A stretch of 64,000 bases of DNA from the NCBI RefSeq assembly GCF_029223255.1, contig NZ_JARHUC010000008.1:1-64000 (forward strand), given 5' to 3'. Made by a program: the position numbers and the translations under genes. The notes beneath the pieces are model-generated. The model had not been told where the DNA came from, ran no database searches, and saw only the letters and a list, made by a program, of their open reading frames with translations. The stretch is from Albimonas marina (lineage in GTDB: Bacteria; Pseudomonadota; Alphaproteobacteria; Rhodobacterales; Rhodobacteraceae). This document shows, piece by piece, positions 16,271-55,511 of the stretch; position 1 is the stretch's first letter; the number at the start of each line of letters is the position of its first letter.

Positions 16271-16478
16271 GGAGCCTCCGGCGGGCTCCTGACTCACCCA
16301 AGAACAAAGCGCCCGCGCCTGTTCTCCGGAGCCGTCTCTCGCTGATGGATGCCTGAGCGACTCGGCCCCCGGGGTCAAGGACAAGCCCCGCTTCGCGGGG
16401 TCGCTCCGCGATCCTTGACCCCGGGGGCCGAGTCGCTCTTTCCGGCATCCGCGAGAGACGGCTCCGGAGAACAGGCGC
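16271..16478 (-). repeat. Long-stem Y-shaped repeat, copy A (version I)
   Basis: Accessory hairpin GGAGCC/GGCTCC (16271-16289). Basal helix of 28 perfect pairs (16315-16342 with 16451-16478). TGAT bulge, then 7-bp helix GGATGCC/GGCATCC (16347-16353 with 16444-16450). Internal loop TG opposite CTTTCC, then a 26-bp perfect helix (16356-16381 with 16412-16437; its left arm holds CGACTCGGCCCCCGG). Tip hairpins are CCCCGC-TTC-GCGGGG and TCGC-TCC-GCGA. Strand is given as minus because each copy follows a minus-strand gene; transcription is not proven. Once the IS is subtracted, the copy lies about 300 bases past the histidine kinase stop. Confidence 0.9.
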
Positions 16479-16753
16479 TTGGCGGCCCGGGCGGGCGGTG
16501 CGCCATGGCGCCTGGATCGCAGGTGGAGAAACGGGGGCGCGGGCGCGTCGGCCGGGGGGCGCCGCGGGCGGGGCGACCGGCGCGACGGGGGACGCGGCGC
16601 CTGGGGCGGCGGGGAGAGGGGGTGCGGCAGGCGTGGAACGGGGCGCGGGGGGGGAGCGCCCGTGTGGCGGGAACGGGCCTAGGGCCTGGCCCCATAAACG
16701 GGATTCCCCTGACGGCTCAGATTTGATTCAACTTCCGCAAGGAGGAGGTTTCG

Positions 16754-17119
16754 ATGCGCCGTCACGAACTGAGCGACCAGGAATGGGCGATCATCCAGCC
16801 GCTGCTGCCGCAGGAGTCGCGCGGCGTGCCACGGGTGGACGACCGGCGGGTGATCAACGGCATCCTGTGGCGGTTCCGGGCCGGAACGCCATGGCGGGAC
16901 GTGCCCGAGCGCTATGGCCCGCGCACCACGCTCTGCAACCGCTTCACGCGGTGGCGGGCGGCCGGGGTCTGGGACCGAATTCTGGAAGCGATCTCAGAAG
17001 CCTATGACGGCGACATCGTGATGATCGACAGCTCCTGCGTCCGCGTCCACCAGCACGGAGCCGCAGGAAAAAGGGGGGCGACGACCATGGCTGCATGGGA
17101 CATTCCCGCGGCGGCCTGA
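16754..17119 (+). CDS. IS5-family transposase, first frame
   Basis: This frame encodes the N-terminal half of the transposase. It has the helix-turn-helix-like DUF4096 region (MRRHELSDQEWAIIQPLLP, then VINGILWRFRAGTPWRDVPERYGP) and the first catalytic Asp in DIVMIDSSCVRVHQHG (about residue 96). A strong AAGGAGG lies just upstream of the ATG. After the run AAAAAGGGGGG at 17068-17078 the reading becomes nonsense (ATTMAAWDIPAAA). The conserved family sequence G-K-K-G-G-D-D resumes only in the frame one base back, so a -1 shift at this run would join the two frames. Confidence 0.85.
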   Translation: MRRHELSDQEWAIIQPLLPQESRGVPRVDDRRVINGILWRFRAGTPWRDVPERYGPRTTLCNRFTRWRAAGVWDRILEAISEAYDGDIVMIDSSCVRVHQHGAAGKRGATTMAAWDIPAAA

Positions 17120-17511
17120 CCACGAAGATCCATGCCCTGGTCGATGCCGAGGGCCGCCCCATCCGTCTGAAGCTCACCCCCGGCCAGGCGGGCGACGCGC
17201 CCGTGGGGACGGCGTTCGTCGCCGATCTCGTTCCCGGCTCGACCCTGATCGCGGACCGCGCCTACGACACCAACCCGATCCGCGAGGTCGCGGCGGCCCG
17301 CGGCGTCTGGGCCAACATCCCGCCCCGCATGATCCGAAAACAGGCCTTCAGCTTCAGCCCCTGGGTCTATCGTCAGCGCAATCGGGTCGAGCGCTTCTTC
17401 AACCGCATCAAACAGTTCCGCGGCCTCGCCACCCGCTACGACCGCAGGCCCGACAACTACCTAGCCGCCCTCAAGCTCGCTGCGATCCGCTTCTGGATTG
17501 CGAACATATGA
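17095..17511 (+). CDS. IS5-family transposase, second frame
   Basis: Encodes the C-terminal catalytic half: SRGGLTTKIHALVDAEGRPIRL, the second catalytic Asp in LIADRAYDTN (about residue 48), and the Glu in YRQRNRVERFFNRIKQFRGLATRYDR (about 102). The coordinates begin at the first ATG, but the functional protein is probably the fusion made by -1 frameshifting near 17,070. If the A-run instead reflects a one-base deletion, this copy would be inactive. It ends with FWIANI, 8 bases before the right inverted repeat region closes. Confidence 0.8.
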   Translation: MGHSRGGLTTKIHALVDAEGRPIRLKLTPGQAGDAPVGTAFVADLVPGSTLIADRAYDTNPIREVAAARGVWANIPPRMIRKQAFSFSPWVYRQRNRVERFFNRIKQFRGLATRYDRRPDNYLAALKLAAIRFWIANI

Positions 17512-17621
17512 GTCCGCGCCCTAGGCCAGGACGGGGAGCTCCGCAGGAGTTGGGAGGCGCTCTGGGGCCGGGTCGGCGGCGGAGGGCCGTCCAGGATGGC
17601 GCGCGCCGGGAGGGCGCGGCA

Positions 17622-19079
17622 TCAGGCGGCGTGGTCGCGGGAGGGGCGGCCGCGGGGGACGAGGCGGGGGCGGGAGGGAAGGCTGACGCGGAAGGCGGCG
17701 CCCTCGGTGGTGGAGGCGGCGAGCTCCACCCGCCCGCCGTGGGCGCGGGCGAGCTCGGCGGCGATCGCGAGGCCCAGGCCCGCGCCGCCGCGGGTGGCGC
17801 CGCCCTTGAACGGGGTGAAGAGATTGGCGCGCGCCTGCTCGGGCAGGCCCGGGCCCTGGTCGGAGACCTCGATCACCACCGTCTCGTCCTCCCTGCTCGC
17901 CGACAGGCGCACCTCGCCCGAGCGCGAGGCGTTCTCCATCGCCTGGCGGGCGTTGCGCGCGAGGTTCACCAGGACCCGGTGCAGCTGGTCGGGATCGGCG
18001 GGCACCGTCAGCCCCTCGGGCGCGGCGTTCACGAAGCGCACGCCCGCGGCGCCGGCGCCGGCGGGGGGCGCCTCGGGGGCGTTGCGGTCGGGGAAGACCA
18101 CGTCGCCCACCTCCTCGGCCAGCGCCCGCAGGGCCACCGTGCGGATCACCGGCGCGGGCTCCTCGGCCTTGCCGAAGTCGAGCGTCGAGGCGCAGAGCGC
18201 GGCCGCCCGGTCCAGCGAGCGGATGATCTTGGGGCCCACCCGCGCCACGCGGGGATCGGCGGAGCCTTCCAGCCGGTCGGCCAGAAGCTGGGCGGTGGTC
18301 AGCAGGTTGCGCAGGTCGTGGGAGACCTTGGCGAGCGCCTCGCCCATCGCCGCCAGCCGCGCCTTGTGGCGCAGGGCCGAGCGCAGCTCGGTCTCGAGCC
18401 CCGCGAGGGTCTTCTCGGCCTCGGCGATCTCGGCGATGGAGCTGTCGGGGCGGATCACCCGCTCGGGATCCTCGGGGTCCTCGGAGAAGCGGCGCATGTT
18501 CTCGATCACCCGGGTCATCGGGCGCACCAGGAAGCGGCGCAGCGCCAGCCAGATCAGGCAGCCGGTCAGCAGCGCGATCACCGCCGACATCGCCAGGATC
18601 CGCAGCGCGTAGGCGACCATGGCCTGGTGCAGGCGCGATTCCTCGACCGTCGCCTCGATCGCGTCGCCGCCGCCGTTCACCGGCAGGCCGATCACCCGGA
18701 TCACCCGGTCGCCGCCGAGCAGCAGCGCCCGCCCCGCGTGGCGCCATTGCGCGAGCAGCCCCTCGGAGCGCAGGTCGTAGGTGGCGTCGACCGGGCGCGG
18801 CATCGGCTGGGCGAGGATCAGCACGCGGGCCTCGTCGCGCTGGAGCACGATGTTGAGGACCTCGGCGGTCTTCAGGAGCTCGGCCTCCAGCTCCGGCGTC
18901 ACCATGTCGTCAGGGGTCGCGAGCAGCGCCAGCGAGGCGATCTGCGCCCGCTCCAGCCGCTCGTCCAGCCAGGCCTCGCGGAAGGCGACGACGGTGGGCG
19001 CGAAGAACAGGCCCTCGATCAGCATGACGAAGGCGGCGGTCAGCAGCAGCAGCCGGCCGGACAGGCTTCGGATCAGCAT
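17622..19079 (-). CDS. Membrane sensor histidine kinase
   Basis: A 485-residue inner-membrane histidine kinase. TM1 is at about 8-32. A periplasmic sensor of about 120 residues contains no recognised domain. TM2 is at about 157-182, with a HAMP linker at about 183-235. The dimerisation/phosphoacceptor segment is KVSHDLRNLLTTAQLLADRL (His254). The ATPase domain has N box NLARNARQAM (about 372-381), G1 DQGPG (about 407-411) and G2 GGAGLGLA. No response regulator is adjacent, so it is an orphan here. The signal is unknown. Start at 19079 chosen because the upstream frame is Arg/Pro-rich. Confidence 0.85.
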   Translation of the reverse strand: MLIRSLSGRLLLLTAAFVMLIEGLFFAPTVVAFREAWLDERLERAQIASLALLATPDDMVTPELEAELLKTAEVLNIVLQRDEARVLILAQPMPRPVDATYDLRSEGLLAQWRHAGRALLLGGDRVIRVIGLPVNGGGDAIEATVEESRLHQAMVAYALRILAMSAVIALLTGCLIWLALRRFLVRPMTRVIENMRRFSEDPEDPERVIRPDSSIAEIAEAEKTLAGLETELRSALRHKARLAAMGEALAKVSHDLRNLLTTAQLLADRLEGSADPRVARVGPKIIRSLDRAAALCASTLDFGKAEEPAPVIRTVALRALAEEVGDVVFPDRNAPEAPPAGAGAAGVRFVNAAPEGLTVPADPDQLHRVLVNLARNARQAMENASRSGEVRLSASREDETVVIEVSDQGPGLPEQARANLFTPFKGGATRGGAGLGLAIAAELARAHGGRVELAASTTEGAAFRVSLPSRPRLVPRGRPSRDHAA

Positions 19080-19283
19080 GGCGGCGCGCAGGCTCCCATC
19101 GCGCTCCTCCTCGCGCAGGCCCGGGGATGCGGAGCTGCGGGGGTCGACGCCGCCGTCGCGGCGCCGAGTTGCCCCAATTGTAGGGCTGAGGTAGGAGGCG
19201 CGCCAGTGGCCGCGGCGACCCGTCCCGTTTCGGGACGCAGCCGCGGTTTCCCCGCGGGAGGCGCGGGAGGGGAGGATCAGCCG

Positions 19284-20090
19284 ATGCCCGAGACCCTCGA
19301 GGTCATGCTGAAGGGAAAGCGTCTGCGGGTGCAGGCGCGCACCGAGATCGAGCGCGCCTTCTGGACGCCCTTCGCCAAGGGCGCCGAGCATGTCGGCTGG
19401 GAGGACGAGACGCTGGATTTCGTGGCCGCCCGGGCCGCGCGCGGCGTGGTCTTCGTCGACATCGGCGCCTGGATCGGGCCGGTCAGCCTGCTCGCCGCCT
19501 CGAAGGGCGCGCGGGTGCTGGCGCTGGAGCCCGACCCGGTGGCGCGCGCCTCGCTGGAGGAGAACCTGGCGCTGAACGGGCTGCGGGCCGAGATCGTGCC
19601 CGCCGCCCTGCACGCGGACGGGGGCGGGCTGACGCTGTTCGGCGGACGGCGGGGGCTGGGCGGCTCGATGACCTCGGCGCTCGGCGTGCACAAGGGCGAG
19701 CCGGTGCATGTGCCCACCGTGACGGTCGAGGAGGTCGCCGACCGCGCGGGCGAGGGGCCGGCGCTGATGAAGGTGGACATCGAGGGGCACGAATATTCGC
19801 TGGGCCCGGAGCTGTCGCGGCTGCGCGCCCGGCTGGGCGGACGGCCCGAGGGGGCGGCGCTGCACCTGTCGCTGCACCCGCGGCTGCTGGTGAAGAAGCT
19901 GCGCCGGTCGTGGACGCTGTTCGCCACGAAGCGCGCCTTCGAGGCGACGCGCGACCTGCTGGCCTGCTTCGGGGACGCGCCGGTCGCCGTCTCGGGCGAG
20001 GGGGGCGGGCCGCTCGACGAGGCGGCCCTGCGCGCGCGGTTCGAGCGCAAGGGCGGCGTGCGCAACTTCGCGGTCGAGATCGGCGGCTGA
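19284..20090 (+). CDS. FkbM-family methyltransferase
   Basis: A 268-residue class I SAM-dependent methyltransferase of the FkbM type, which usually O-methylates sugars or small molecules. The SAM-binding motif is GVVFVDIGAWIGPVSLLAASKGARVLALEPD (about residues 50-80). A later TVTVEEVADRAGEG and LMKVDIEGHEYSLG (about 155-175) is the characteristic FkbM K-x-D-I-E-G-x-E motif. GGAGGGGAGG precedes the ATG. It diverges from the histidine kinase across 204 bases and is followed by a strong terminator. Substrate unknown. Confidence 0.8.
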   Translation: MPETLEVMLKGKRLRVQARTEIERAFWTPFAKGAEHVGWEDETLDFVAARAARGVVFVDIGAWIGPVSLLAASKGARVLALEPDPVARASLEENLALNGLRAEIVPAALHADGGGLTLFGGRRGLGGSMTSALGVHKGEPVHVPTVTVEEVADRAGEGPALMKVDIEGHEYSLGPELSRLRARLGGRPEGAALHLSLHPRLLVKKLRRSWTLFATKRAFEATRDLLACFGDAPVAVSGEGGGPLDEAALRARFERKGGVRNFAVEIGG

Positions 20091-20146
20091 GGCCCCCTGC
20101 CCCGCGGCGCGGGGCGGTTTCGCATGAAATTATCCAATGACGTCAG

Positions 20147-20176
20147 GGCGCCCCGGCTTTCCGCCGGGGCGCCTTT
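20147..20176 (+). terminator. Rho-independent terminator after the FkbM gene
   Basis: A perfect 11-bp stem GGCGCCCCGGC / GCCGGGGCGCC with loop TTTCC, followed by TTT. It lies 57 bases past the stop. Confidence 0.75.
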
Positions 20177-20456
20177 CGCGTTCCGGGCGAGCGTTCCGGG
20201 CGGGCGGAACGCCCCGCTCCGCGCAGAGATCGCCTGCGCTTTGCGCAACTGCGCCTGTCGAAAAGGCGCCCGGCATCGTCGGTGCACGAATGAACCGGGC
20301 GGCGGACCGCTTCGCTTGACAGCCACGTAAGGCGAGTCGCAGCGTGGAGGGGCTCCGTCCCGTGGATGGCGCGCGAACCGTACATGCAGGCCCAGTCTCC
20401 GGCCGCCTTCAACGACCCGAGTCCCGCAGCACTCTTCCGAACACCGAGAGGACCGC
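20177..20456 (+). promoter_or_regulatory. Leader region of the peptide-type ABC operon
   Basis: These 280 bases precede the substrate-binding protein gene. TTGACA at 20316-20321 is a consensus -35, but no good -10 is found 17 bases on, so an activator-dependent or alternative promoter is possible. A short open frame from about 20366 is not convincing. A GAGAGG ribosome site precedes the ATG. Confidence 0.4.
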
Positions 20457-22511
20457 ATGAAACGCCAGTTGCTCGCGAGCGCTTCGCTCTGCGCCTTCGC
20501 GACCGTCTTCGCGACCGCCGCCGCGGCGAACTGCCCGGCCGTCACCGTCGCCGATCCGATGGGGGTCGCCGCCGGCGCCTATCCCCAGCAGTACGACCTG
20601 GCGGAGTTCCAGGAGCTGGCCTCCTGCGAGCTGGGCTTCCAGGAGAACCCCGCGATCGGGGAGCTGAACGCCCGCATCACCGGCAACCCCGCCGAGCTGC
20701 CCCCGGTGGCCGAGCGCCTGCCGGAGGAGCCCCTCGTCGTCGCCCCCTACACCAAGATCGGCGTCTACGGCGGCGTTCTGGACGGGCTGTCGAACGCGAC
20801 CGAGGCCGGCACCTCGGACCTGCTGTCGGTGCGCCACGTGAACCTGGTGCGCTTCTCGGACGACCTGCAGACGATCGTGCCGAACGTCGCCAAGTCGTGG
20901 GAGTGGAACGCGGACTTCACCGAGCTGACCTTCACCCTGCGCAAGGGGCACAAGTGGTCGGACGGATCGCCCTTCACCGCCGAGGACGTGGCGTTCTGGT
21001 ACAACGACGTCACCATGAATAAGAACCTGGTCGAGAAGCCGCGCGACCTGTGGTTCGCGGGCGGCGAGCCCTTCAAGGTCGAGGTCGTGGACGAGGTCAC
21101 GGTGAAGTTCACCATGGCCGCGCCGAAGCCGGGCCTGCTGGCGAGCTTCGCCACCGACTTCGCCCAGCCGTTCCTGCCCAAGCGCTTCTTCGGCCCGTTC
21201 CACCCCGACGTCTCGGCGGACGCGGACGAGAAGGCCAAGGCGCTCGGGTTCGAGAGCGGCTATGAGCTGATCAACTTCTACTACGGCGCCTCGGACTGGA
21301 AGGACGTGCCCTCGCCTTATCTGAAGGACCCGGCGAAGATCCCCTCCCTCCCCGCAGCGGTGGCGCCGACGCTCGAGAGCCACATCACCGTCGAGGACAC
21401 CACCGAGGGGCGGCGCGTGGTCGCCAACCCCTACTTCCACATGGTGGACACGGCGGGCAACCAGCTCCCCTACTTCAACGAGATGGCCGAGCTCTACGTC
21501 AACGAGAACGAGGTCCGGATCCTGAAGATGGTCAACGGGGAGATCGACTACAAATCCCAGTCGATCACCCTGCCCGACGCGCCCACGCTGCTCGATGGGC
21601 AGGAGGCCGGCGGCTACGTGGTGGACCTGCGCCCGCAGATCGCCTCGCCCACCATCACCTTCAACCTGACCGACGCCGACGAGGGCAAGCGGGCGCTGTT
21701 CAACGAGAAGGACTGGCGCCTGGCGATGTCGACCGCGATCAATCGCGACGAGATCAACTCGGTCGCCTATTTCGATCTCGGCGAGCCGAAGCAGATGCTG
21801 ACCTTCGCGCCCACCCCCTCCTTCGCCACCGAGGAGCAGGCGACCTTCGCGACCGAGTACGATCCCGACGGCGCCAAGGCCAAGCTCGACGCGCTGGGGG
21901 TGGTGGACAAGGACGGCGACGGCTGGCGCGACCTGCCCGACGGCGCGCCGCTCACGCTCAACATCCAGTTCGCGACGCAGGGCGTGGCCACGGCGGTGAT
22001 CGAGCTGGTGGCCCAGCACTGGCAGGACGTGGGCGTGAACGCCACCATCAAGGAAGTGACGCCCGACGAGTATCGCGCCGCGCAATCGGCCAACGAGCTC
22101 TCGGTCCACGTCTGGCTGCACGGCGCGCCGATCCCGGTGCTGCTGGGCGACCCGCAGCCCTTCATCGCGCCCTTCGGCAGCTACTTCTTCCTGCGCAACG
22201 GCATGCTGTGGGCGCAGTACATCGAGACCGAGGGCAAGGAGGGCGTCGAGCCCCCCGCCTGGGTCGGCGAGTGGAAGGACCTGGTCCTGTCCTGGCAGCA
22301 GCACCTGCCCGGCAGCGCGGAGTCCGACGAGATCGGCGCGAAGCTGATCGAGGCGCAGCTCGACCAGTTCATCTTCATCGGCCTCGTCGAGGCGCCGAAC
22401 CCGATCTACCACTCCACCAAGCTCGAGAACTTCGAGACGCCCAAGACCTGGTCCTACGAGTATTACCGCGTCTATCCCTACCGCCCGCAGCAGTGGTCGC
22501 TGGCGGACTGA
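20457..22511 (+). CDS. ABC importer substrate-binding protein (family 5, peptide/nickel type)
   Basis: A 684-residue periplasmic solute-binding protein. It has a signal peptide (MKRQLLASASLCAFATVFATAAAA, cleaved near residue 24) and no lipobox Cys. SBP family 5 hallmarks are VPNVAKSWEWNADFTELTFTLRKGHKWSDGSPFTAEDVAFW (in two adjoining blocks, about 140-182), DTAGNQLPYFNEMAE, and VDKDGDGWRDLPDG, a likely calcium-binding-type loop common in this family. It is longer than OppA/DppA (about 540) and closer in size to the large variants used for oligopeptide or sugar-like ligands, so the ligand is open. First gene of a five-gene operon with both permeases and both ATPases. Confidence 0.85.
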   Translation: MKRQLLASASLCAFATVFATAAAANCPAVTVADPMGVAAGAYPQQYDLAEFQELASCELGFQENPAIGELNARITGNPAELPPVAERLPEEPLVVAPYTKIGVYGGVLDGLSNATEAGTSDLLSVRHVNLVRFSDDLQTIVPNVAKSWEWNADFTELTFTLRKGHKWSDGSPFTAEDVAFWYNDVTMNKNLVEKPRDLWFAGGEPFKVEVVDEVTVKFTMAAPKPGLLASFATDFAQPFLPKRFFGPFHPDVSADADEKAKALGFESGYELINFYYGASDWKDVPSPYLKDPAKIPSLPAAVAPTLESHITVEDTTEGRRVVANPYFHMVDTAGNQLPYFNEMAELYVNENEVRILKMVNGEIDYKSQSITLPDAPTLLDGQEAGGYVVDLRPQIASPTITFNLTDADEGKRALFNEKDWRLAMSTAINRDEINSVAYFDLGEPKQMLTFAPTPSFATEEQATFATEYDPDGAKAKLDALGVVDKDGDGWRDLPDGAPLTLNIQFATQGVATAVIELVAQHWQDVGVNATIKEVTPDEYRAAQSANELSVHVWLHGAPIPVLLGDPQPFIAPFGSYFFLRNGMLWAQYIETEGKEGVEPPAWVGEWKDLVLSWQQHLPGSAESDEIGAKLIEAQLDQFIFIGLVEAPNPIYHSTKLENFETPKTWSYEYYRVYPYRPQQWSLAD

Positions 22512-22619
22512 CGCGCCCGGCGTGAGACCTGCGCGCGGCCGGCCGGACCGGCCGCGCGGCCCCCTCTTCCCGCCCGGCGAGATCGCCGCACCCGAGCCCG
22601 CGCGGCCCCGTCCGCGCCC

Positions 22620-26819: not shown

Positions 26820-26849
26820 GCGGGGCGGCGGCGGGGCCCGGAACGGCGA

Positions 26850-32043: not shown

Positions 32044-32236
32044 GCGTCTCCTGGCGGGCTGGCTGCGGCGCGGCGGCGGGTCGGCCGTTCACCTATGGCG
32101 ATGGGACGGTTCGTCCACCCCTCGGCGGAGGCTTCCGAGGGGCGGCGAGGGAGGGACGGAGGCGCCCTGCGGGCGGGCTTGGGCCTGCGGCGAAGGGTGC
32201 GCGGGGTTGTGGAAGGGCGCTCGGCGCGGGGAGGTC

Positions 32237-32442
32237 GGAACCTCCGGCGGGCTCCTGACTCACCAAAGAACAGGGCCGCGCCTGTCCTCCGGATCCGTCT
32301 CTCGCTGATGGATGCCTGAGCGAGTCGGGGGGAGGGGTCAAGGACAAGCCCGCGCAAGCGCGGGTCGCTTCGCGATCCCTGACCCCTCCCCCCGACTCGC
32401 TCTTTCCGGCATCCGCGAGAGACGGCTCCGGAGAACAGGCGC
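32237..32442 (-). repeat. Long-stem Y-shaped repeat, copy B (version II)
   Basis: Basal helix 32278-32305 with 32415-32442, with two mismatches in the left arm (GTCC for GTTC; GGATCC for GGAGCC). 7-bp helix 32310-32316 with 32408-32414. 26-bp helix 32319-32344 with 32376-32401 (left arm holds CGAGTCGGGGGGAGG; one A-C mismatch). Tip hairpins are CCCGCGC-AA-GCGCGGG and TCGC-TTC-GCGA. The accessory hairpin 32237-32255 is imperfect. A 28-base leader shared with C and D lies at 32158-32185. It starts 49 bases past the stop of the minus-strand TIM-barrel gene. Confidence 0.88.
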
Positions 32443-32490
32443 TTCGTGGGCCCGGGCGGGCGTCGCGCCGGGGCGCCAGGGGGCGGGCGG

Positions 32491-41400: not shown

Positions 41401-41626
41401 CTTCACCCTGGGCGTGACGCCGCTGGCGATCGCGACGGGGGCGTCCTCGGCCTCCCAGAACGCGATCGGCGTGGCGGTGCTGGGGGGCATGATCTCGGCC
41501 ACCCTGCTGGCGGTGATCTTCGTGCCGGCCTTCTTCGCCTTCGTGATGAAGCGCATGGGACGCAAGCCGCCGCCGCCGAGGCCGGCGCCCCCCGCGGAGG
41601 AGGAGGGCAACCTCTTCACCGGCTGA
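38477..41626 (+). CDS. RND multidrug efflux transporter (AcrB/MexB, HAE-1 type)
   Basis: A 1,049-residue proton-driven inner-membrane pump, the same length as E. coli AcrB. It opens MPSFFIDRPIFAWVVAIFIM. The proton-relay Asp407-Asp408 in LAIGILVDDAIVVVENVERI is at the same residue numbers as AcrB, and the relay Lys is at 935 in GLSAKNAILIVEF. Phe/Gly-rich pocket segments such as GLGTSSGFDFRLQDRNG (about 670) mark the HAE-1 class. No outer-membrane channel gene is adjacent, so a shared TolC-type protein is expected. Regulated with the upstream TetR. Confidence 0.95.
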   Translation: MPSFFIDRPIFAWVVAIFIMIGGALAIPQLPIAQYPNVAPPSVQIRAVYPGAAPEDLYQTVTRPIEDELNGIEGLLYFESTSEASGSVQITATFQPGTSLDQAQVDVQNRIRRVESRLPETVTRLGIDVETSASGFLMVVSLTSTDGSVSPVGLGDYLSRNVAGEIRRIEGVGGATVFSAERAMRIWLDPDKMLGLGLTTNDVLAAIRAQNAQVAAGKIGAAPNPEDQSITASVVVRGQLDSVEAFEQILLRANADGAVVRLKDVARVEIGAEDYNFSSRLNGQSSAALGVQLAPAGNAIATSEAVRAKMEELSRYFPEGIEYSVPYDTSPFVALSIEKVLHTLLEAVGLVFLVMLLFLQSFRYTVIPTIVVPVALLGACAVMLLAGFSINVLTMFAMVLAIGILVDDAIVVVENVERIMSEEGLPPREATRKAMGQISGAIVGITLVLSAVFIPMAFFPGAVGVIYRQFSLTMVVSILFSGFLALSLTPALCASFLKPVKAGHQMTKKGPLGWFNRGFDRTTNGYSRLARLAARRAGIMMVLYLGLVGFLGWSWTNLPSSFLPNEDQGFLIVDMQTPPEASVNRTLDFVKTVEGVASSQEGVQDIVAILGFSFSGGGQNAALAFITLKDWSERGPDQSAQAIAGRVTGMLWPQKDGFAFALSPPPIQGLGTSSGFDFRLQDRNGAGIAALYEARDQLMAAASQSEIVTGLRVSGLPDAAQLRVTLDREKANTFGVAFSDINATLTSFLGSAYANDFPNSGRMQRVVVMAEDAARMTPDDVLSLNVRNSLGGMVPLSAFATVDWIRGPLQIVGYNGYPSIRISGSAAEGFSSGQAIDEMERLMGELPAGFGYEWTGQSLQEIQSGSQAPFLIALSGVFVFLLLAALYESWAIPLSVMLVVPLGAIGAVLGVTWHGMSNDVYFKVGLIAIMGLSAKNAILIVEFAKDLRDEGMDLLEATVEAAKLRFRPIIMTSLAFTLGVTPLAIATGASSASQNAIGVAVLGGMISATLLAVIFVPAFFAFVMKRMGRKPPPPRPAPPAEEEGNLFTG

Positions 41627-41633
41627 CGAACCG

Positions 41634-41661
41634 ACGGCCGCCTCCCAGGGGGCGGCCGTTT
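41634..41661 (+). terminator. Terminator after the AcrB-type gene
   Basis: A 9-bp stem ACGGCCGCC / GGCGGCCGT with loop TCCCAGGG, then TT, 7 bases after the stop. It is separate from, and upstream of, repeat copy C. Confidence 0.7.
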
Positions 41662-41738
41662 CGCTTCGCGAGGGACGGAGGCGCCCTGCGGGCGGGCTTG
41701 GGCCTGTGGGGGCCGGCGCGCCCGGATTGCAGGGGCAG

Positions 41739-41947
41739 GGAGCCTCCGGCGGGCTCCTGACTCACCAAAGAACAGGGCCGCGCCTGTTCTCCGGAGCCGT
41801 CTCTCGCTGATGGATGCCTGAGCGAGTCGGGGGGAGGGGTCAAGGACAAGCCCCGCGCAGAGCGCGGGGTCGCTTCGCGATCCCTGACCCCTCCCCCCGA
41901 CTCGCTCTTTCCGGCATCCGCGAGAGACGGCTCCGGAGAACAGGCGC
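41739..41947 (-). repeat. Long-stem Y-shaped repeat, copy C (version II)
   Basis: Accessory hairpin GGAGCC/GGCTCC (41739-41757). Basal helix of 28 perfect pairs (41780-41807 with 41920-41947). 7-bp helix 41812-41818 with 41913-41919. 26-bp helix 41821-41846 with 41881-41906 (left arm holds CGAGTCGGGGGGAGG; one A-C mismatch). Tip hairpins are CCCCGCGC-AGA-GCGCGGGG and TCGC-TTC-GCGA. The 28-base leader shared with B and D is at 41677-41704. It lies between convergent genes, 57 bases past the stop of the minus-strand AttH-like gene. Confidence 0.9.
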
Positions 41948-42003
41948 TTCGCGGCCCCTGCGGGCGTCGCGACCCGGCGCCTGGAGGGGCCGACGGGGCG
42001 CGG

Positions 42004-46921: not shown

Positions 46922-47105
46922 CCGACCTTCCCCTGTTTGGATCGATGCAAGGGGATACGCGGGCGGGGGCGGATCGGATCAGTCGCAGCCCGGGTCGTGG
47001 CGCGGGTCCTGGCGCGGAGCGCGGGCGGCGGAGGCCCCGGGTCGGGCCCGGGGCGCCCTGCGCCGGCCGGCGGGGCGAGCGCCTGGGGCCCCGGCGCGCC
47101 GGGGG

Positions 47106-50100: not shown

Positions 50101-50270
50101 ACCCGGGCGGGGTCGGCGCCGGGATAGGGGGTGAAGATGTTGGCGAAGAGGTTGGTGATCGTGGGGTCTTCCTGCCGGCCGATGGTCAGGAAGGCGGAGG
50201 CGCCGGCGGCGACCAGGACCAGGATCACCAGCGCGGTCAGGCGGGCCTGGCGGAAGAACAGCGTGCGCAT
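47106..50270 (-). CDS. RND efflux transporter with altered proton-relay pair
   Basis: A 1,054-residue RND pump of the group that pairs with HlyD-type adaptors rather than AcrA. It begins MRTLFFRQARLTALVILVLV and has GRQEDPTITNLFANIFTPYPGADP (in two blocks, about 31-54). The TM4 relay reads LGLLVDAAIVMTDEIRRR, with Asp402 followed by Ala403, so the second Asp of AcrB is absent and the nearest acidic residues are Asp409-Glu410. The late membrane part has GVIGSIGVSVNACIIILTAL without a Lys at the AcrB relay position. The drug or metal specificity is unknown. It follows its adaptor gene after 88 bases. Confidence 0.9.
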   Translation of the reverse strand: MRTLFFRQARLTALVILVLVAAGASAFLTIGRQEDPTITNLFANIFTPYPGADPARVEALVTEKIEAELREIPEIKRITSTSSTGMSVLNVELSEFLDDAAIDIAWSDIRQALRDVARELPEGVPEPEFDDDRTGAFSAISALMPRDADVPPAILARHAEMLEDRLRALSGVSLVSSYGMPEEEVLVTVDPDALGPLGLSAAQVAAAISQADPKVSAGRLRGAATDLLIEVSGEIRSLDRVREIPLATNAEGFSVRVGDVATVEKTARVPAPSLARVDGRPAVLVAAKMEEGRQVDAWIRTVKAALADYEASLPGGLEHRLIFDQSGYTADRLSEVAMNMAVGVGLVVAVLFLTLGFRAALVVAAVLPLVGLATLATLNFMGIPIHQMSVTGMIVALGLLVDAAIVMTDEIRRRLAAGMPRVEAVGDAVGRLAAPLLASTVTTALTFMPMILLPGPAGDFVGTVAISVVAMLAWSFVIAMTVTPALSGWLLPDPSKGGGIVANGISGAAFGRLFAGSLRLATRNPVPAVAWALVLPVMGFLAFPSLTPQFFPGVDRDQFYIDVEMPSGAAVAATEATSEAISQALASEDGIRQVAWVIGESAPSFYYNMTMNKVGVPGFARALVTTESNAATARLVPHLQRTLPAVAPGARILVRDLVQGPPVQAPVELRLHGDDLALLRATGDAIRGIIESSPDIASVQTTMEGGAPKLDFALDEDKARLAGLDLVSVARQLDAALEGVVGGSLVEGSEELPVRVRVGAARRADAAFVETFEVVAPDGRLVPLSTLGEMRVVPSDSAISRRDGERVNTVAAFVRYGVLPEAALAQAQRLLDEAGFEPPQGVRLEVGGDADARNEVIQNLMAPLGLIVTLSIATVVLTFNSFRLGAVATVVMVLSAGLSILSLAICGYPFGITAVVGVIGSIGVSVNACIIILTALQEDPRAAAGDRDAMAEVVLGASRHIVSTTVTTFGGFLPLILGGGGFWPPFAMSIAGGVLLSTVVSFYFTPPMFALVARRATPAGQGAPVPPEPEAARPALAALPSRPAPAQGNLFAAE

Positions 50271-50358
50271 GGCGGGCTCCGTGATCGGGTCCGGGCGGCG
50301 GGAGGGCGGAAGGGTCGGGGGCGCCCCGGGCCTGGCCCGGAGCCTCCCGGGGCCGGGG

Positions 50359-51648
50359 TCAGTCGGCGGAGGCGAGGGTGGCGGGCGCATCCTCGCCCAG
50401 CGCCTCGGAGAGCGGGATCTCGGCCGCGTCGAGGCGCAGGCCGGGGGCGAGCTTGTGGGCGCCCGCGGCCACCACCCGGTCGCCGGGGGCGAGGCTGCCG
50501 CGCACGAAGGCGCGCTCGCCCTCGACATGCAGGAGTTCGACCGATTCCACGCCCGCGACCGCGCCGCCGGGGCGCTCCTCGACCGTCAGCACGGTCCACA
50601 GGCCCTTGCCGCCCTCGCGCAGCGCGGCGACGGGGAGCCAGAAGCCGCTTTCGTCGCGGGTGCGCTCCAGGATCACCGAGACGGCGGCGCCGAAGGCGAC
50701 GGGAAACTCGGGGGGCGCCAGCAGGTCGAGCAGCGCCGCCCGGGTGCGGGTGGCGGGGTCCACGTCGGGGCGCACCGCGGCGACGGCGGCGGTCAGGCGG
50801 CGGCCGTCGATCTCCACCGTCATCAGCGTGCCGGGTTCGAGCCGCGCGGCGGCGTCGGCGGGCAGGCCCACGCGCACCTGGGGGCGGTCGGCCTCGATCA
50901 GCTCCAGGATCGGCTGGCCGGCGGAGACCACCGCGCCCTCGTCGGCGGAGCGGGCGGCGATCTCCCCGGCGAAGGGGGCGCGCAGCTCGGAATGGTCGAG
51001 GTCGATGCGCGCGGCGCGCAGGCCGGCGTCGCTCTGGCGAAGGGCGGCGGCGATGCGGTCGGCCTCGAGCCGCGCCTCGTCCCAGCGCTGGTCGGAGGCG
51101 AAGCCGCGGTCGCGCAGCGCCGCCTGGCGCTCCAGCGTGCGGCGGGCGAGCTCGGCCTGCGCCTCCTGCGCCGCGCGCTGGGCCTCGAGCTCGGCGATGC
51201 GGGCGCGGATGCGGGCGGCGTCGAGACGGGCGAGGAGCTGGCCCGCCTGCACGCGGTCCCCTTCCTGCACCGCCACCGTCTCGACCGTGCCGGCGAGGTC
51301 GAAGGCCGCCTGGATGCGGCGGGCGGGCTCGACCACGCCCAGGCGCCGGGTCTCGACGCGCAGGCCGTCGGCGCGCGCGACCGTGACCACCGGCGCGGTG
51401 GTGGGCGCGGAGGCGGCGTGGGGCGCGAGGTCGGGGGCGTTGCGCTCCTGCAGGGCCTGGGCGCCCAGCACGGCGGCGACGCCCGCGGCGGCGGCGAGAC
51501 CGGTGGAGAGGGTCAGCCGGCCCGCCCGGCGGGCGATCCGGCGGCCGAGGGACGGCGCGGCGGGGGACGACGCGGCTGGGGACGGCGCGGCGGGGGCGGG
51601 GCCCGATCCGGCCGGGGCGCCGTCTGCGGCGGAACGCTGGGGCGTCAT
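50359..51648 (-). CDS. RND membrane-fusion protein (HlyD-type adaptor)
   Basis: A 429-residue adaptor. The cytoplasmic/low-complexity N-terminus is followed by one span (LTLSTGLAAAAGVAAVLGAQA, about 45-65). Lipoyl halves are IQAAFDLAGTVETVAVQEGDRVQAGQLLARLD (in two blocks, about 112-143) and LDHSELRAPFAGEIAARSADEGAVV (in two blocks, about 218-242). A coiled coil (about 145-215) and a beta barrel with VGLPADAAARLEPG lie in the expected places. It is anchored by its N-terminal helix rather than secreted. It diverges from a TetR gene across a region with two tandem operators, so it is probably repressed by that protein. Confidence 0.88.
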   Translation of the reverse strand: MTPQRSAADGAPAGSGPAPAAPSPAASSPAAPSLGRRIARRAGRLTLSTGLAAAAGVAAVLGAQALQERNAPDLAPHAASAPTTAPVVTVARADGLRVETRRLGVVEPARRIQAAFDLAGTVETVAVQEGDRVQAGQLLARLDAARIRARIAELEAQRAAQEAQAELARRTLERQAALRDRGFASDQRWDEARLEADRIAAALRQSDAGLRAARIDLDHSELRAPFAGEIAARSADEGAVVSAGQPILELIEADRPQVRVGLPADAAARLEPGTLMTVEIDGRRLTAAVAAVRPDVDPATRTRAALLDLLAPPEFPVAFGAAVSVILERTRDESGFWLPVAALREGGKGLWTVLTVEERPGGAVAGVESVELLHVEGERAFVRGSLAPGDRVVAAGAHKLAPGLRLDAAEIPLSEALGEDAPATLASAD

Positions 51649-51666
51649 CGACTCTCTCCACGCGAT

Positions 51667-51700
51667 GTTAGCGTTGCTAACTTATGTTAGAGACACTAAC
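51667..51700. promoter_or_regulatory. Tandem TetR operators (GTTAG-N5-CTAAC twice)
   Basis: GTTAGCGTTGCTAAC (51667-51681) and GTTAGAGACACTAAC (51686-51700) share perfect GTTAG/CTAAC half-sites and lie 19 bp apart centre to centre. They are the only AT-rich stretch between the divergent adaptor gene (start 51648) and TetR gene, and are ideally placed to repress both. Confidence 0.8.
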
Positions 51701-51792
51701 TTGCATTGCAACCCCCGACCAGCGAAAATCGGCGGAAGATGATCGGCGGGCGACCCTCGCCCCCACCCGAACAGCAATCGACCGGACCGCCC

Positions 51793-52470
51793 ATGGCTCA
51801 AGCCTCCCCTCCGTCCCCGCCCGCGGACGCCGACCCGGCGTCCGGCGCGGCCTGCTGCCGACGCGCGAGCTACCACCACGGAGACCTGGCGCAGGCCCTG
51901 CTGGCGGCGGTGCGCGAGCTGGTGGAGCGGGACGGGGCGGACCGCATGTCCGTCTCGAAGGCCTGCCGGATGGCGGGCGTCTCGACCGCGGCGCCCTACA
52001 AGCATTTCCGCGACCGCAACGACATCCTGCGCACGCTGTGCGACCACGGCTTCGACGAGATGCGCGAGACGATGCACGCCTCGCGCGCGGTGGTCCCCGA
52101 GCCGGGGGCGGAGCGGATCGCGGCCATCGGCAAGGCCTACGTGGCCTTCGCCGCCGCCAACCCGGGCCTGTTCCGGGTGATGTTCGGCATGAAGCGGGAG
52201 CTGACGGACCCCTCGGACGAGGACTACGGGCTCGAGGCGAAGAAGTGCTTCGAGGTGGTGATCTCGGACGTCGCCGCGGCCTCGGGGCTGGAGCCGGGGA
52301 CCGAGCCGGCGATGCGCCTCGCGATCATGCTGTGGACCTTCGTGCATGGGGTGGCGACGCTGCTGATCGACGGCGACTACGAGGTGACCGAGGTGCCGGT
52401 GAACACCGACGCCCTGATCGAGGCCGCCGCCCGCGGCCTGCTGCAGGGCGGCCCCCCGCGGGCGGACTGA
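51793..52470 (+). CDS. TetR-family repressor of the second RND system
   Basis: A 225-residue TetR regulator. The diagnostic YHHGDLAQALLAAVRELVERDGADRMSVSKACRMAGVSTAAPYKHFRDRNDI (several adjoining blocks, about 27-78) holds the helix-turn-helix. The ligand domain includes AYVAFAAANPGLFRVMFG (about 118-135), the TetR_C_33-like core. The N-terminal 25 residues are Pro/Ala-rich. Start is uncertain: ATG 51793 is used here; ATG 51739 and TTG 51706 are upstream in frame, but both lie close behind the operators. Paired operators in the shared promoter support autoregulation. Confidence 0.85.
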   Translation: MAQASPPSPPADADPASGAACCRRASYHHGDLAQALLAAVRELVERDGADRMSVSKACRMAGVSTAAPYKHFRDRNDILRTLCDHGFDEMRETMHASRAVVPEPGAERIAAIGKAYVAFAAANPGLFRVMFGMKRELTDPSDEDYGLEAKKCFEVVISDVAAASGLEPGTEPAMRLAIMLWTFVHGVATLLIDGDYEVTEVPVNTDALIEAAARGLLQGGPPRAD

Positions 52471-52844
52471 GCGCAGGCGCGCGCCGTCCACCTCGTCTCT
52501 CTCCCCGGCCCTTGCGCCCGGCGTCTGCGTGGCAGGCGCCGCGTGAACCCGCCCGCCCCTGGCCGGCCTCGCGCCCGCGGCGCATCCCGGCCGGGGGGCG
52601 GGGGACGACCGTTTCCCGCGGCGGGCCGCGCGGCGTCCGCCCGGCGCCGGGGCCTCCGGGCGACGGGATCGGCCCCGGGCGGCGCCCGCCCCGAGCGCCG
52701 ACGCCGGGGCGCGCCGCGGGCGGGGCCTCGGCCCCCGGCGCGGGGGTCCACGCGGCGCATTCGCTGCGCATGCGGCTCCCTCCCGCCCCTCGTCTTCCCT
52801 TCCTCCGGGCCCGGGTCTATCGTCCGGCGCCCAGGGAGGACCTC
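52471..52844. other. 374-base intergenic stretch
   Basis: Very GC-rich, with no recognisable gene, repeat family member or terminator. It should carry the promoter of the dehydrogenase gene, whose ribosome site (AGGGAGG) is at 52832-52838. No -35/-10 pair is convincing. Confidence 0.4.
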
Positions 52845-54218
52845 ATGACCATCCAGACCGCGATCGCCGAGCTCAGGACCCTCCTGGGCGAGCGCCTGTC
52901 CACCGCCGATTCCGTGCGCGACCTGCACGGCCGGGACGAAAGCTGGCACCCCGACGTGCTCCCCGACGCCGTCGCCTTCCCCGAGACCACGCAGGAGGTC
53001 TCGGAGATCGTGAAGATCTGCGCGGCGAACGGCTGCCCGATCGTGCCCTGGGGCGTGGGCACCTCGCTCGAGGGGCACGCGCTGGCGGTGCAGGGGGGGC
53101 TCAGCCTCGACATGACCCGCATGGACAAGGTCCTGGAGGTGCATGCCGAGGACATGGACGCCGTCGTGCAGCCCGGCATCACCCGCGAGGCGCTGAACGA
53201 GCACCTGCGCGCCACGGGCCTGTTCTTCTCGGTCGATCCCGGCGCCAACGCCACGCTGGGCGGCATGGCCGCCACCCGCGCCTCGGGCACCAACGCGGTG
53301 CGCTACGGCACCATGCGCGAGAACGTGCTGGCGCTGGAGGCGGTTCTGGCCGACGGGCGGATCATCCGCGCCGGCTCCCGCGCGCGCAAATCCTCCACCG
53401 GCTACGACCTCAAGAGCCTGCTGGTCGGCTCCGAGGGGACGCTGGGCATCATCACCGAGCTGACCGTGCGCCTGTGGGGCACGCCCGAGGGGATCTCGGC
53501 CGCCACCTGCGCCTTCGAGAGCCCCGAGGGCGCGGTCGCCGCCGTGATCCAGACCATCCAGATGGGCGTGCCGATGGCGCGCATCGAATACGTGGACGAA
53601 TGGTCGATCGCCGCGGTGAACGCCTGGGCGAAGATGTCCCTGCCCGAGACGCCGCACCTGTTCGTCGAGTTCCACGGCACGCCCGAGGGCGTGAAGGAGC
53701 AGGCCGAGATTTTCGGCGAGATCGCCGCCGAGCACGGCGGCGGCGACTTCAAGTGGACCACCAACGCCGAGGAGCGCGCGAAGCTCTGGCACGCGCGGCA
53801 CAACTTCTACTATGCGGGCCGGGCGCTGCGGCCGGGCTGCAAGGGCATCTCGACCGACGTCTGCGTGCCGATCTCGCGCCTCGCCGAGGCGGTGATCGAG
53901 GCGCGCCGCGACATCCGCGAGGCGGGCCTGCAGGGCGGCATCATCGGCCACGTGGGCGACGGCAACTTCCACTGCGGCCTCTACTTCGATCCCGACAGCC
54001 CCGAGGAGCTGGCCAACGTCAAGACGGTCGCCGCGAAGCTCGCGCAGACCGCGCTGCGCCTGGGCGGCACCGTCTCGGGCGAGCACGGCATCGGGGTCGG
54101 CAAGAAGGGCTACATGGCCGCCGAGCATGGCGAGGCGCTGGGGGTGATGGCCCAGATCAAGCGGACGCTGGACCCGCAGGGCATCCTCAACCCCGGCAAG
54201 ATGCTGGACCTGAACTGA
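52845..54218 (+). CDS. FAD-linked D-lactate/glycolate-type dehydrogenase (GlcD/Dld family)
   Basis: A 457-residue FAD oxidase of the vanillyl-alcohol-oxidase superfamily, likely D-lactate dehydrogenase (cytochrome) or glycolate oxidase subunit D. The FAD-binding domain shows PIVPWGVGTSLEGHALAVQGG (in two blocks, about 65-85), VVQPGITREALNEHLRATGLFFSVDPGANATLGGMAATRASGTNAVRYGTMRENVL (several blocks, about 105-160) and GSEGTLGIITELTVRLWG (about 192-209). The C-terminal cap has IIGHVGDGNFHCGLYFD (about 366-382) and SGEHGIGVGKKGYM (about 410-423). No GlcE/F genes follow, which favours the single-subunit D-lactate type. ATG after AGGGAGG. Confidence 0.85.
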   Translation: MTIQTAIAELRTLLGERLSTADSVRDLHGRDESWHPDVLPDAVAFPETTQEVSEIVKICAANGCPIVPWGVGTSLEGHALAVQGGLSLDMTRMDKVLEVHAEDMDAVVQPGITREALNEHLRATGLFFSVDPGANATLGGMAATRASGTNAVRYGTMRENVLALEAVLADGRIIRAGSRARKSSTGYDLKSLLVGSEGTLGIITELTVRLWGTPEGISAATCAFESPEGAVAAVIQTIQMGVPMARIEYVDEWSIAAVNAWAKMSLPETPHLFVEFHGTPEGVKEQAEIFGEIAAEHGGGDFKWTTNAEERAKLWHARHNFYYAGRALRPGCKGISTDVCVPISRLAEAVIEARRDIREAGLQGGIIGHVGDGNFHCGLYFDPDSPEELANVKTVAAKLAQTALRLGGTVSGEHGIGVGKKGYMAAEHGEALGVMAQIKRTLDPQGILNPGKMLDLN

Positions 54219-54688
54219 TGGAGGGCGAGGCGGAGGGGGAGGCCGCGCAGGGGGAGGCCGCGCGCCTCGCCCGCGGCTTCCTCGCCGCCTGGTCGGCCCA
54301 TGACGCGGCCGCGCTGGGGGCGCTGTTCGCCACGGACGCGGATTTCGTGAACGTGACCGGCCTGTGGTGGCACGGGGCCGAGCGGATCGCGCGCGTGCAC
54401 GGCGTCGCCTTCAAGACCTACTTCGCCGGCGCCGTCCTGACCGAGGAGCGCCTGGAGACCCGGGCGCTGGGCCCCGGCGCGGCGCTGGCCCGGGTGCGCG
54501 TGCGGATGGAGGGCCAGCGCGGCCCCGACGGCGCGCCCGGCGGCCCCCGGCGCGCGATGCTGCTGCTGGTCGCCCAGGCCCGGCCCGAGGGCTGGCGGCT
54601 GGTCGCCGCCCAGAACACCGACCTGGTGGAGGGGGCGGAGACGCTGCTCGCCGGCCCCGACGGCCTGGGCGGCGCGCGCTACGCCTGA
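54218..54688 (+). CDS. NTF2-like (SnoaL/SgcJ-EcaC type) protein
   Basis: A 156-residue protein with the cone-shaped NTF2-like fold pattern: LARGFLAAWSAHDAAALGALFATDADFVNVTGLWWHG (in two blocks, about 18-54), then strands RLETRALGPGAALARVRVRM, AMLLLVAQARPEGWRLVAAQNT and a short tail. This resembles the SgcJ/EcaC group, whose members are mostly uncharacterised. Its ATG overlaps the dehydrogenase stop by one base, so it is part of that transcript. Confidence 0.7.
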   Translation: MEGEAEGEAAQGEAARLARGFLAAWSAHDAAALGALFATDADFVNVTGLWWHGAERIARVHGVAFKTYFAGAVLTEERLETRALGPGAALARVRVRMEGQRGPDGAPGGPRRAMLLLVAQARPEGWRLVAAQNTDLVEGAETLLAGPDGLGGARYA

Positions 54689-54778
54689 GGGCGGCGGGCG
54701 GCTCGCGTCGCCCGGCCGCGGAGGGTAGGAAGGACCCCGACGACGGGCCGAAGCGCCCGCGATGGGAGGAGAGACCCG

Positions 54779-55234
54779 ATGACCGACGCCCCCTGCCCCG
54801 ATTTCTGCGTGGACCCCGAGCGCGCCCAGTGGGAGGCCTTCAAGGCCCTGCCCCGCGACGAGCCGGTGGAGATGCTGAACCTGGTGCGCTTCCGCGAGAC
54901 GGCCGCCTACCCCGAGGGCCACGCGCTGGCCGGGGCCGGCCTGACCGGCGCGCAGGCCTACGAGAATTACGGGCGCGAGAGCGGGCCGGTCTTCTCCGGC
55001 CTCGGCGGAAGGATCATCTGGCGGGGCGAGTTCCGCACCGTCCTGATCGGCCCAGCCGGCGAGCGCTGGGACGAGGCCTTCATCGCCCGCTATCCCACCG
55101 CCTCGGCCTTCATCGAGATGCTGATGACGCCGGCCTACCAGCAGGCGGTGGTGCATCGCCAGGCGGCGGTGCTGACCTCCCGCCTGATCCGCAACGCGCC
55201 GGCGGAGGCGGGCGACGGGTTCGCCTTCGGCTGA
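54779..55234 (+). CDS. DUF1330-family protein
   Basis: A 151-residue protein with the ferredoxin-like dimeric alpha/beta layout of DUF1330: EPVEMLNLVRFRETA (about 27-41), AYENYGRESGPVFSGLGGRIIWRGEFRTVLIGP (in two blocks, about 60-92) and YPTASAFIEMLMTPAYQQAVVHRQAAV (in two blocks, about 104-130). The function of the family is unknown. GGGAGGAG precedes the ATG. It follows the NTF2-like gene by 90 bases and is convergent with recN, with repeat copy D between. Confidence 0.8.
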   Translation: MTDAPCPDFCVDPERAQWEAFKALPRDEPVEMLNLVRFRETAAYPEGHALAGAGLTGAQAYENYGRESGPVFSGLGGRIIWRGEFRTVLIGPAGERWDEAFIARYPTASAFIEMLMTPAYQQAVVHRQAAVLTSRLIRNAPAEAGDGFAFG

Positions 55235-55306
55235 AGCGGGGGGCGGAGGCGCCCTGCGGGCGGGCTTGGGCCCGTGGGGTCGGGCGCGCCTGGGACGGCG
55301 AGGACG

Positions 55307-55511
55307 GGAGCCTCCGGCGGGCTCCTGACTCACCGAAGAACAGGGCCGCGCCTGTTCTCCGGAGCCATCTCTCGCTGATGGATGCCTGAGCGACTCGGCC
55401 CCCGGGGTCAAGGACGAGCCGGCTTCGCCGGTCGCCTGCGGCGATCCTTGACCCCGGGGGCCGAGTCGCTCTTTCCGGCATCCGCGAGAGACGGCTCCGG
55501 AGAACAGGCGC
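55307..55511 (-). repeat. Long-stem Y-shaped repeat, copy D (version I)
   Basis: Accessory hairpin GGAGCC/GGCTCC (55307-55325). Basal helix 55348-55375 with 55484-55511 (one mismatch, GCCATC for GCCGTC in the left arm). 7-bp helix 55380-55386 with 55477-55483. 26-bp perfect helix 55389-55414 with 55445-55470 (left arm holds CGACTCGGCCCCCGG). Tip hairpins are CCGGC-TTC-GCCGG and TCGCC-TGC-GGCGA, both changed from the other copies yet still paired. The 28-base leader is at 55245-55272 (one base differs). It lies 160 bases past the recN stop on the minus strand. Confidence 0.9.

What the first reader, a model, noticed from the sequence alone, without database searches (positions are those of the whole stretch)
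16271..55511. Undescribed family of long-stem, Y-shaped intergenic repeats (four copies)
Four near-identical blocks of about 205-210 bases (16271-16478, 32237-32442, 41739-41947, 55307-55511) share the same ordered plan: an accessory hairpin (GGAGCC/GGCTCC), a 28-bp basal helix, a TGAT bulge, a 7-bp helix (GGATGCC/GGCATCC), a TG/CTTTCC internal loop, a 26-bp helix and two tip hairpins. Three of them also share a 28-base leader (32158-32185, 41677-41704, 55245-55272). No transposase-like gene or target duplication accompanies them, and they are far longer than ordinary terminators. I do not know a named family with this structure.
Basis: seen in the sequence. Interest (0 to 1): 0.92.

Follow-up and report, generated by a model that had tools for sequence, protein, structure and literature searches.

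The report
Dispersed RNA-hairpin repeat in Rhodobacterales
The four long hairpins belong to a large, apparently unnamed family of repeats that sits between genes in a number of Rhodobacterales bacteria and looks like a folded RNA read from the opposite strand; what it does and how it spreads are unknown.

Summary
The two blocks folded beat every shuffle (z about -14). The four belong to a family of at least 137 copies in this 5.8-Mb genome, probably an Albimonas. A model from six genera finds full-length matches in 20 of 390 sampled Rhodobacterales genomes, own included, 18 of 140 genera. Rfam 15 has no match; the phage, plasmid and viral-contig searches made found none.

In 20 of 20 other genomes (19 genera) the reverse complement folds better, with G.U in place of A.C; covariation is strong. 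This points to a single strand, most simply an RNA. An 8-nt direct repeat flanks the stem, nearly identical within a copy, different between copies.

Copies lie between genes, mostly at gene 3' ends, in either orientation. Two related genomes share many sites, yet copies there are not each other's closest relatives. I read it as a REP/ERIC-like repeat with a strand-specific RNA fold, probably mobile in trans. Function, mobility and enzyme are not shown; Y1-transposase and reverse-transcriptase mobilisers were not supported.

The parts
16266..16479 (-). copy 1, core (model R1 1-213); no leader A
   Evidence: best-folding strand of the family is minus
16300..16308 (-). copy 1, direct repeat DR1 (segment c on the RNA strand)
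16318..16325 (-). copy 1, stem foot complementary to the repeats (segment b)
16467..16475 (-). copy 1, direct repeat DR2 (segment a)
16494..16512 (.). copy 1, trailer-like sequence
   Evidence: family statistics
32158..32185 (.). copy 2, leader A
32232..32443 (-). copy 2, core; absent from the orthologous gap of genome G001, which keeps a leader A
32266..32274 (-). copy 2, DR1 (c)
32281..32288 (-). copy 2, stem foot (b)
32431..32439 (-). copy 2, DR2 (a)
32459..32477 (.). copy 2, trailer-like sequence
41677..41704 (.). copy 3, leader A; begins after a separate terminator-like hairpin of the upstream gene
41734..41948 (-). copy 3, core; a copy of different sequence occupies the same gap in G001
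41768..41776 (-). copy 3, DR1 (c)
41783..41790 (-). copy 3, stem foot (b)
41936..41944 (-). copy 3, DR2 (a)
41963..41981 (.). copy 3, trailer-like sequence
55245..55272 (.). copy 4, leader A
55302..55512 (-). copy 4, core; a copy of different sequence occupies the same gap in G001
55336..55344 (-). copy 4, DR1 (c)
55351..55358 (-). copy 4, stem foot (b)
55500..55508 (-). copy 4, DR2 (a)
55527..55545 (.). copy 4, trailer-like sequence

Best explanation
It is a family of dispersed, non-coding intergenic repeats (core about 190-215 nt, with leader and trailer about 320) whose functional form is a single strand folded from the minus strand, most simply an RNA. Shown by computation: high copy number; a fold kept by covariation and by wobble pairs on one strand only; spread over at least 18 Rhodobacterales genera; confinement to intergenic DNA, mostly facing a gene 3' end; differences in occupancy between two related genomes; and an 8-nt segment present twice (a and c) and, in most copies, once in complement (b). 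Inferred: copies spread as non-autonomous mobile elements through a trans-acting enzyme not identified here, and are exchanged between sites by gene conversion or re-insertion. Also inferred: the a/b/c foot can switch between a closed long stem (a:b) and a small hairpin (b:c), and a copy transcribed in the sense orientation puts a very stable hairpin in the neighbour's mRNA and alters its processing or decay, as proposed in print for ERIC.
For: Copies: 136 places with R1, 1 more. Spread: full-length R2 matches in 20 of 390 order genomes, own included (the weakest were not all inspected); 16, 13 and 16 places in G022, G233 and G268 after removing reverse-strand rows. The minus strand folds better in 44 of 44 copies, 20 of 20 genomes, 26 of 29 untied of 30 (G001) and 127 of 135 (G000); flanking controls 15 of 44 and 14 of 43, which lean the other way. 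Covariation on 17 sequences of 10 genomes: 91.4% of cells paired against 76.9% shuffled, score 0.441 against 0.176, 0 of 500 shuffles. Direct repeats: 7.44 of 8 letters equal against 3.79 shuffled, best of 2000 shuffles 4.79, 32 distinct 8-mers in 43 parsed of 44; 129 of 131 parsed G000 copies agree at the last two of three variable positions. Place: 0 of 136 inside predicted genes; convergent gaps enriched (odds ratio 3.9, p 3e-8), divergent depleted (0.30, p 1.6e-4). Turnover: of 11 comparable loci 7 are shared and 3 lack the core in G001; the 7 shared copies rank 3rd to 28th of 30 in similarity.
Against: No expression data. In tandem gaps the RNA strand is sense in 42 and antisense in 31 (p 0.24), so no general cis role in one orientation. 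Insertion was not seen: all 3 gaps that lack the core in G001 hold leader sequence there and one holds a single repeat without the stem, so loss in G001 is at least as likely as gain in G000. Sharing of 7 of 11 sites is unlike a freely jumping element. No duplication was found at the outer ends. In some copies a = c although b is weak or missing (rows L279, L295, L305, by eye), which weakens the switch reading; the minimum-energy fold uses a:b in 37 and b:c in 2 of 42, and the b:c state is a median 8.5 kcal/mol less stable. A single-stranded DNA intermediate would leave much the same strand signature.
Confidence: 0.55

Rival explanations
1. A two-way 3'-end device: the hairpin ends or insulates transcription between converging genes and protects mRNA 3' ends, as proposed for REP elements; position, not mobility, explains the pattern.
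For: Enriched in convergent gaps; sites shared between species while sequences are exchanged.
Against: No clear U-run follows the stem (by eye; segment c is pyrimidine-rich); at copy 3 the upstream gene has its own terminator-like hairpin before the leader in both genomes; a two-way device does not explain a strand-specific fold.
Confidence: 0.22
2. A multi-copy small-RNA gene family acting in trans, with the two equal 8-nt pyrimidine-rich segments a and c as seeds.
For: Strand-specific fold in 19 genera with conserved unpaired motifs in the 10 genomes aligned; a equals c even in copies where b is weak.
Against: No promoter was looked for; 137 copies in either orientation at gene ends is unusual for an RNA gene; 32 distinct 8-mers in 43 copies.
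Confidence: 0.13
3. A DNA-level palindrome: cruciform-forming DNA whose arms are kept equal by template switching, without selection on a single strand.
For: In G000 the upper helix has 39 distinct 17-nt blocks; in 76 of 131 parsed copies (of 135) the two arms are exact complements and in 47 more they differ at one place, with few one-sided intermediates; two G000 copies have the interior inverted.
Against: The A.C/G.T asymmetry and the one-sided folding energy are not expected from double-stranded DNA.
Confidence: 0.08

Closest known systems
YPAL/RU-2 (Yersinia palindromic sequence, about 168 bp)
   Same: Intergenic, internal inverted repeats, not AT-rich, no TA ends; target duplications of 3-26 bp at or next to dyad symmetry are reported (passages of PMC2229807).
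   Different: Here the direct repeat is inside the element, the fold is strand-specific and the hosts are Rhodobacterales; no sequence comparison with YPAL was run.
ERIC/IRU/RU-1
   Same: Intergenic repeat whose RNA was proposed to change shape under ribosomes and alter mRNA stability, orientation-dependent (passages of PMC2229807).
   Different: ERIC is 127 bp (abstract of PMC2759123 in the listing) with TA ends and inverted ends (table); this core is about 190-215 nt with three related 8-nt segments. No ERIC sequence was compared.
CIR (Caulobacter/Brucella intergenic repeats)
   Same: Alphaproteobacterial structured intergenic repeats (passages of PMC2229807).
   Different: CIR RNA is described as two arms with a linker and a GANTC motif; here one long arm with two tip hairpins. 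No CIR sequence was compared.
REP/BIME with RAYT (TnpA-REP)
   Same: More than 100 extragenic palindromes per genome (abstract of PMC2817692 in the listing).
   Different: REPs are 20-40 bp (abstract of PMC3733652 in the listing); no Y1_Tnp match in any of 8 genomes searched, with 5 of 14 control genomes positive.
HRC-8-4 motif
   Same: A structured element found only in Rhodobacterales (section read, PMC8632094).
   Different: HRC-8-4 lies mainly between the cco operons or by hvrB and resembles a terminator with a U-run; this family is dispersed over many loci. Sequences were not compared.

Membership tests
REP elements mobilised by RAYT (TnpA-REP) | a Y1 transposase gene in the same genome | tested here: not met
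   PF01797: 0 of 8 genomes, 5 of 14 controls positive
REP elements mobilised by RAYT (TnpA-REP) | short 20-40 bp hairpin | tested here: not met
   core of 213 model positions; REP length from the abstract of PMC3733652. The GTAG/CGTC tags were not searched
MITE | inverted ends with target-site duplications at the outer ends | tested here: inconclusive
   the stem is flanked by an 8-nt direct repeat, but conserved sequence lies outside it (CTCACC or a close form in most of the 44 copies); gaps without the core show no clean outer duplication
MITE | a parent transposon with the same ends | tested here: inconclusive
   none seen; the one split G000 copy holds a phage-like insert; no genome-wide search for separated ends was made
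ERIC | homology to the ERIC consensus | not tested
   no ERIC sequence was compared
YPAL/RU-2 | homology to the YPAL consensus | not tested
   no YPAL sequence was compared
Any Rfam 15 family | match at gathering score, or at E up to 0.5 or 0.1 | tested here: not met
   window at gathering, only a tRNA; 11 loci at E 0.5; 18 loci at E 0.1
Reverse-transcriptase-mobilised element (group II intron, retron) | a reverse transcriptase in the genomes that hold the copies | tested here: not met
   PF00078: none in G000, G233, G268, G540; one each in G001, G022, G587; three in G002, which has no R2 match

The most novel reading that the evidence does not exclude
A mobile element of a new kind that moves as a folded single strand (RNA or DNA) and carries its own 8-nt address: segment b pairs with the equal segments a and c at both feet of the stem, so that cutting and joining at a and c is programmed by base pairing, and changing the 8-mer retargets the element.
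Probability: 0.1. Interest if true: 0.92.

Novelty: new variant of a known kind. Interest (0 to 1): 0.62.

Why it matters
If right, a number of Rhodobacterales carry from one to well over a hundred copies of an unnamed structured repeat that puts a very stable hairpin beside gene ends. It would be a tractable case for two open questions: how bacterial repeats without a transposase of their own spread and stay alike, and whether such repeats act as RNA. The equal-but-changing 8-nt segments are a directly testable feature.

Tried and rejected
RAYT/Y1 transposase: no match in 8 genomes. Reverse transcriptase: none in G000, G233, G268, G540, one each in G001, G022, G587, three in G002 without copies; not the common mobiliser. 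Known Rfam family: none. Plasmid, phage and viral carriage: none found with two query stretches and two exact patterns; distant forms could be missed and records near the window's genome may be left out. Autonomous parent in the one split copy: the insert is about 40 kb with phage-type frames and the same 6 bases at both junctions, so it is an insertion into the repeat. Target-duplication reading of the direct repeats: not adopted, because conserved sequence lies outside DR1. Outside Rhodobacterales: 2 genomes of 385 in the class search, alike mainly at the tip, not counted. In one search five of the 25 matching genomes match only part of the model and were not counted as full-length. Scripts 42 and 43 failed for a wrong pattern; one search replaces them. 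One search dropped 22 of 135 copies that it could not parse; one search uses all 135. label 'one per genus' what is one per genome: the 20 genomes are 19 genera, two sharing one. Literature: searches gave no description of this family in the listings; passages were seen of PMC2864571, PMC8632094 and PMC2229807, and one section of PMC8632094; all other papers were seen in listings only. De Gregorio's own papers on ERIC and YPAL were not read.

Full report
OBSERVATION. Two of the four were folded: z -14.5 and -14.2, and no shuffle of 200 folds as well. Rfam at gathering scores shows only a tRNA in the window.

COPY NUMBER. A covariance model R1 from 65 copies (51 of G000, 14 of G001) listed 150 matches in the own genome; 14 are the reverse strand of another listed match, leaving 136 places, 135 intact and one interrupted. 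The genome is probably an Albimonas: an exact pattern hit three loci of Albimonas pacifica and one of an alphaproteobacterial MAG, and two of the A. pacifica loci align to G000 stretches at 88-91% over 2.9-5.8 kb; the genus is placed in Rhodobacterales, Paracoccaceae.

ANATOMY. In the G000 DNA held, leader A is next to a core in 83 of 84 occurrences, B in 19 of 19, C in 7 of 8, the eighth being the missed copy; but this DNA was, apart from the window, fetched around cores. In 380 kb of G001 chosen by contig, 11 of 17 leader A occurrences are next to a core. A trailer-like sequence follows in 93 of 135 copies against 4 of 135 in a control stretch. Leader and trailer were not defined for other genera. 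In G000 three variable positions of DR1 and DR2 were parsed in 131 of 136 copies; the last two agree in 129. The upper helix is variable but complementary: 39 distinct blocks in 131 parsed of 135 copies, 76 exact and 47 with one mismatch. Two copies have the interior inverted (C16:333973 and C16:319280).

WIDER FAMILY. BLAST matched 3 of 41 genomes: the own one, G001 (same genus) and G022; G002 of the same genus had none. R1 matched 6 of 295 family genomes, own included. R2, built from 19 sequences of six genera, matched 25 of 390 order genomes at E 1e-5, own included; 20 of these, in 18 genera, match over the full model, five only in part. At most six candidates per genome were scored, so these are lower bounds; on the other side the weakest full-length matches (45-58 bits) were not all inspected. 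With more scoring, G022, G233, G268, G271 and G276 gave 29, 23, 19, 2 and 3 rows, that is 16, 13, 16, 1 and 3 places after removing reverse-strand rows; G002 gave none. In the class search 2 of 385 genomes besides the own one had a match, alike mainly at the tip.

STRAND. I compared the two arms of each stem by identity, a method that treats both strands alike. On the complementary strand these are G.U wobbles. The minus strand has the lower folding energy in 44 of 44, in 20 of 20 with one per genome, in 26 of 29 untied of 30 in G001 and in 127 of 135 in G000; flanking stretches gave 15 of 44 and 14 of 43, so they lean to the other strand. Copies within a genome are related, so the one-per-genome count is the one to trust. 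On a 17-sequence minus-strand alignment from 10 genomes 39 of 62 pairs have changes on both sides and 91.4% of cells pair, against 76.9% in shuffles (0 of 500 reach it) and at most 51.3% when the partner is slid; that structure was derived from the same alignment, which favours it on the slid control.

THE THREE RELATED SEGMENTS. In 43 parsed of 44 copies from other genomes, DR1 and DR2 agree in 7.44 of 8 letters on average against 3.79 when repeats are dealt anew, the best of 2000 shuffles being 4.79; there are 32 distinct DR1 8-mers. On the RNA strand the order is a - stem - b - loop - c, with a = c and b complementary. The b pairing exceeds every shuffle, but by less (best window 7.17 with c and 7.26 with a, of 8, against 6.64 and 6.66, maxima 7.00 in 1000 shuffles; 42 copies), and in some copies b is weak or missing while a = c stays (rows L279, L295, L305, by eye). 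The minimum-energy fold uses a:b in 37 and b:c in 2 of 42, and the b:c state is a median 8.5 kcal/mol less stable.

PLACE AND TURNOVER. With a simple codon-usage gene finder of my own, 0 of 136 copies lie inside a gene; 52 are in convergent, 73 in tandem, 11 in divergent gaps, against 42, 193 and 70 for the other gaps in the same DNA, by subtraction. That background comes from DNA mostly around the copies and is not a genome-wide sample. In tandem gaps the minus (RNA) strand is sense in 42 and antisense in 31; adding 9 and 9 in other genomes gives 51 and 40: no significant preference. In 380 kb of G001, 11 G000 loci could be compared: 7 have a copy at the same place (two of them judged from one flank), 3 lack the core, and at one G000 has the split copy and G001 a truncated copy in the opposite orientation. 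At the 7 shared places the G001 copy ranks 19, 13, 3, 14, 28, 27 and 18 of 30 sampled G001 copies in similarity to the G000 copy; at one, even the leader type differs. All 3 gaps without a core hold leader sequence in G001, and one a single repeat unit without the stem. These gaps therefore fit loss of the core in G001 at least as well as gain in G000.

MECHANISM. Shown: dispersal, strand-specific fold with covariation, equal repeats, gap preference, differences in occupancy and exchange of sequence between sites. Inferred: mobility in trans; the switch; an effect on neighbouring mRNAs. A Y1 transposase is absent from all 8 genomes searched. A reverse transcriptase is absent from G000, G233, G268 and G540, present once each in G001, G022 and G587, and three times in G002, which has no copies. 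No plasmid, phage or viral-contig match was found.

KNOWN KINDS. By the review PMC2229807 (passages), YPAL/RU-2 and ERIC are the nearest in kind; homology to them was not tested. Rfam 15 has no match in 11 loci at E 0.5 or 18 loci at E 0.1. Paper searches listed no description of this family; the library holds open-licence papers only.

Noticed in passing
genome G000 contig C12, about 557916-598425 (L247 to L249): One copy of the repeat is split by an insert of about 40 kb with lower G+C near one end and ParB-like and other phage-type frames; the same six bases stand at both junctions, as in a Mu-like transposing prophage (frames judged by eye, no family search).
   Followed up: partly
window 16754-17511: Two overlapping frames of an IS4/5-type transposase (DUF4096 and DDE_Tnp_1) about 275 bases from copy 1.
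   Followed up: partly
L202 and L184 (G000 C16:319280) and L066 (C16:333973): Two copies in which the inner hairpin is inverted relative to leader and foot; in the first the arms have also become a near-perfect palindrome, as template switching in a hairpin would do.
   Followed up: partly
G001 contig C41 132752, 148678, 148737, 156292 and C32 (fetched part) 18435, 66768: Leader A sequences with no core beside them in G001: the leader may be a repeat of its own or a remnant of lost copies.
   Followed up: partly
L319 and L320: Two genomes outside the order have long hairpins with a similar tip (CAAGGCC..GCGCGG..CCTTGA type) but not the rest; the tip may be a module used by other alphaproteobacterial repeats.
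   Followed up: no
window 41626-41676 and its counterpart in G001 C41: A separate, conserved terminator-like hairpin follows the AcrB-family gene before the repeat begins.
   Followed up: no
L292 (G276), L298 (G022), L299 (G268) and others: A second main form of the element has an A-rich tip stem (AAAAT/ATTTT with AGCCGTCTCCCC/GGGGCCCCTCGGCG) instead of the GTCAAGGACAAGCC tip; both forms occur in G022.
   Followed up: no
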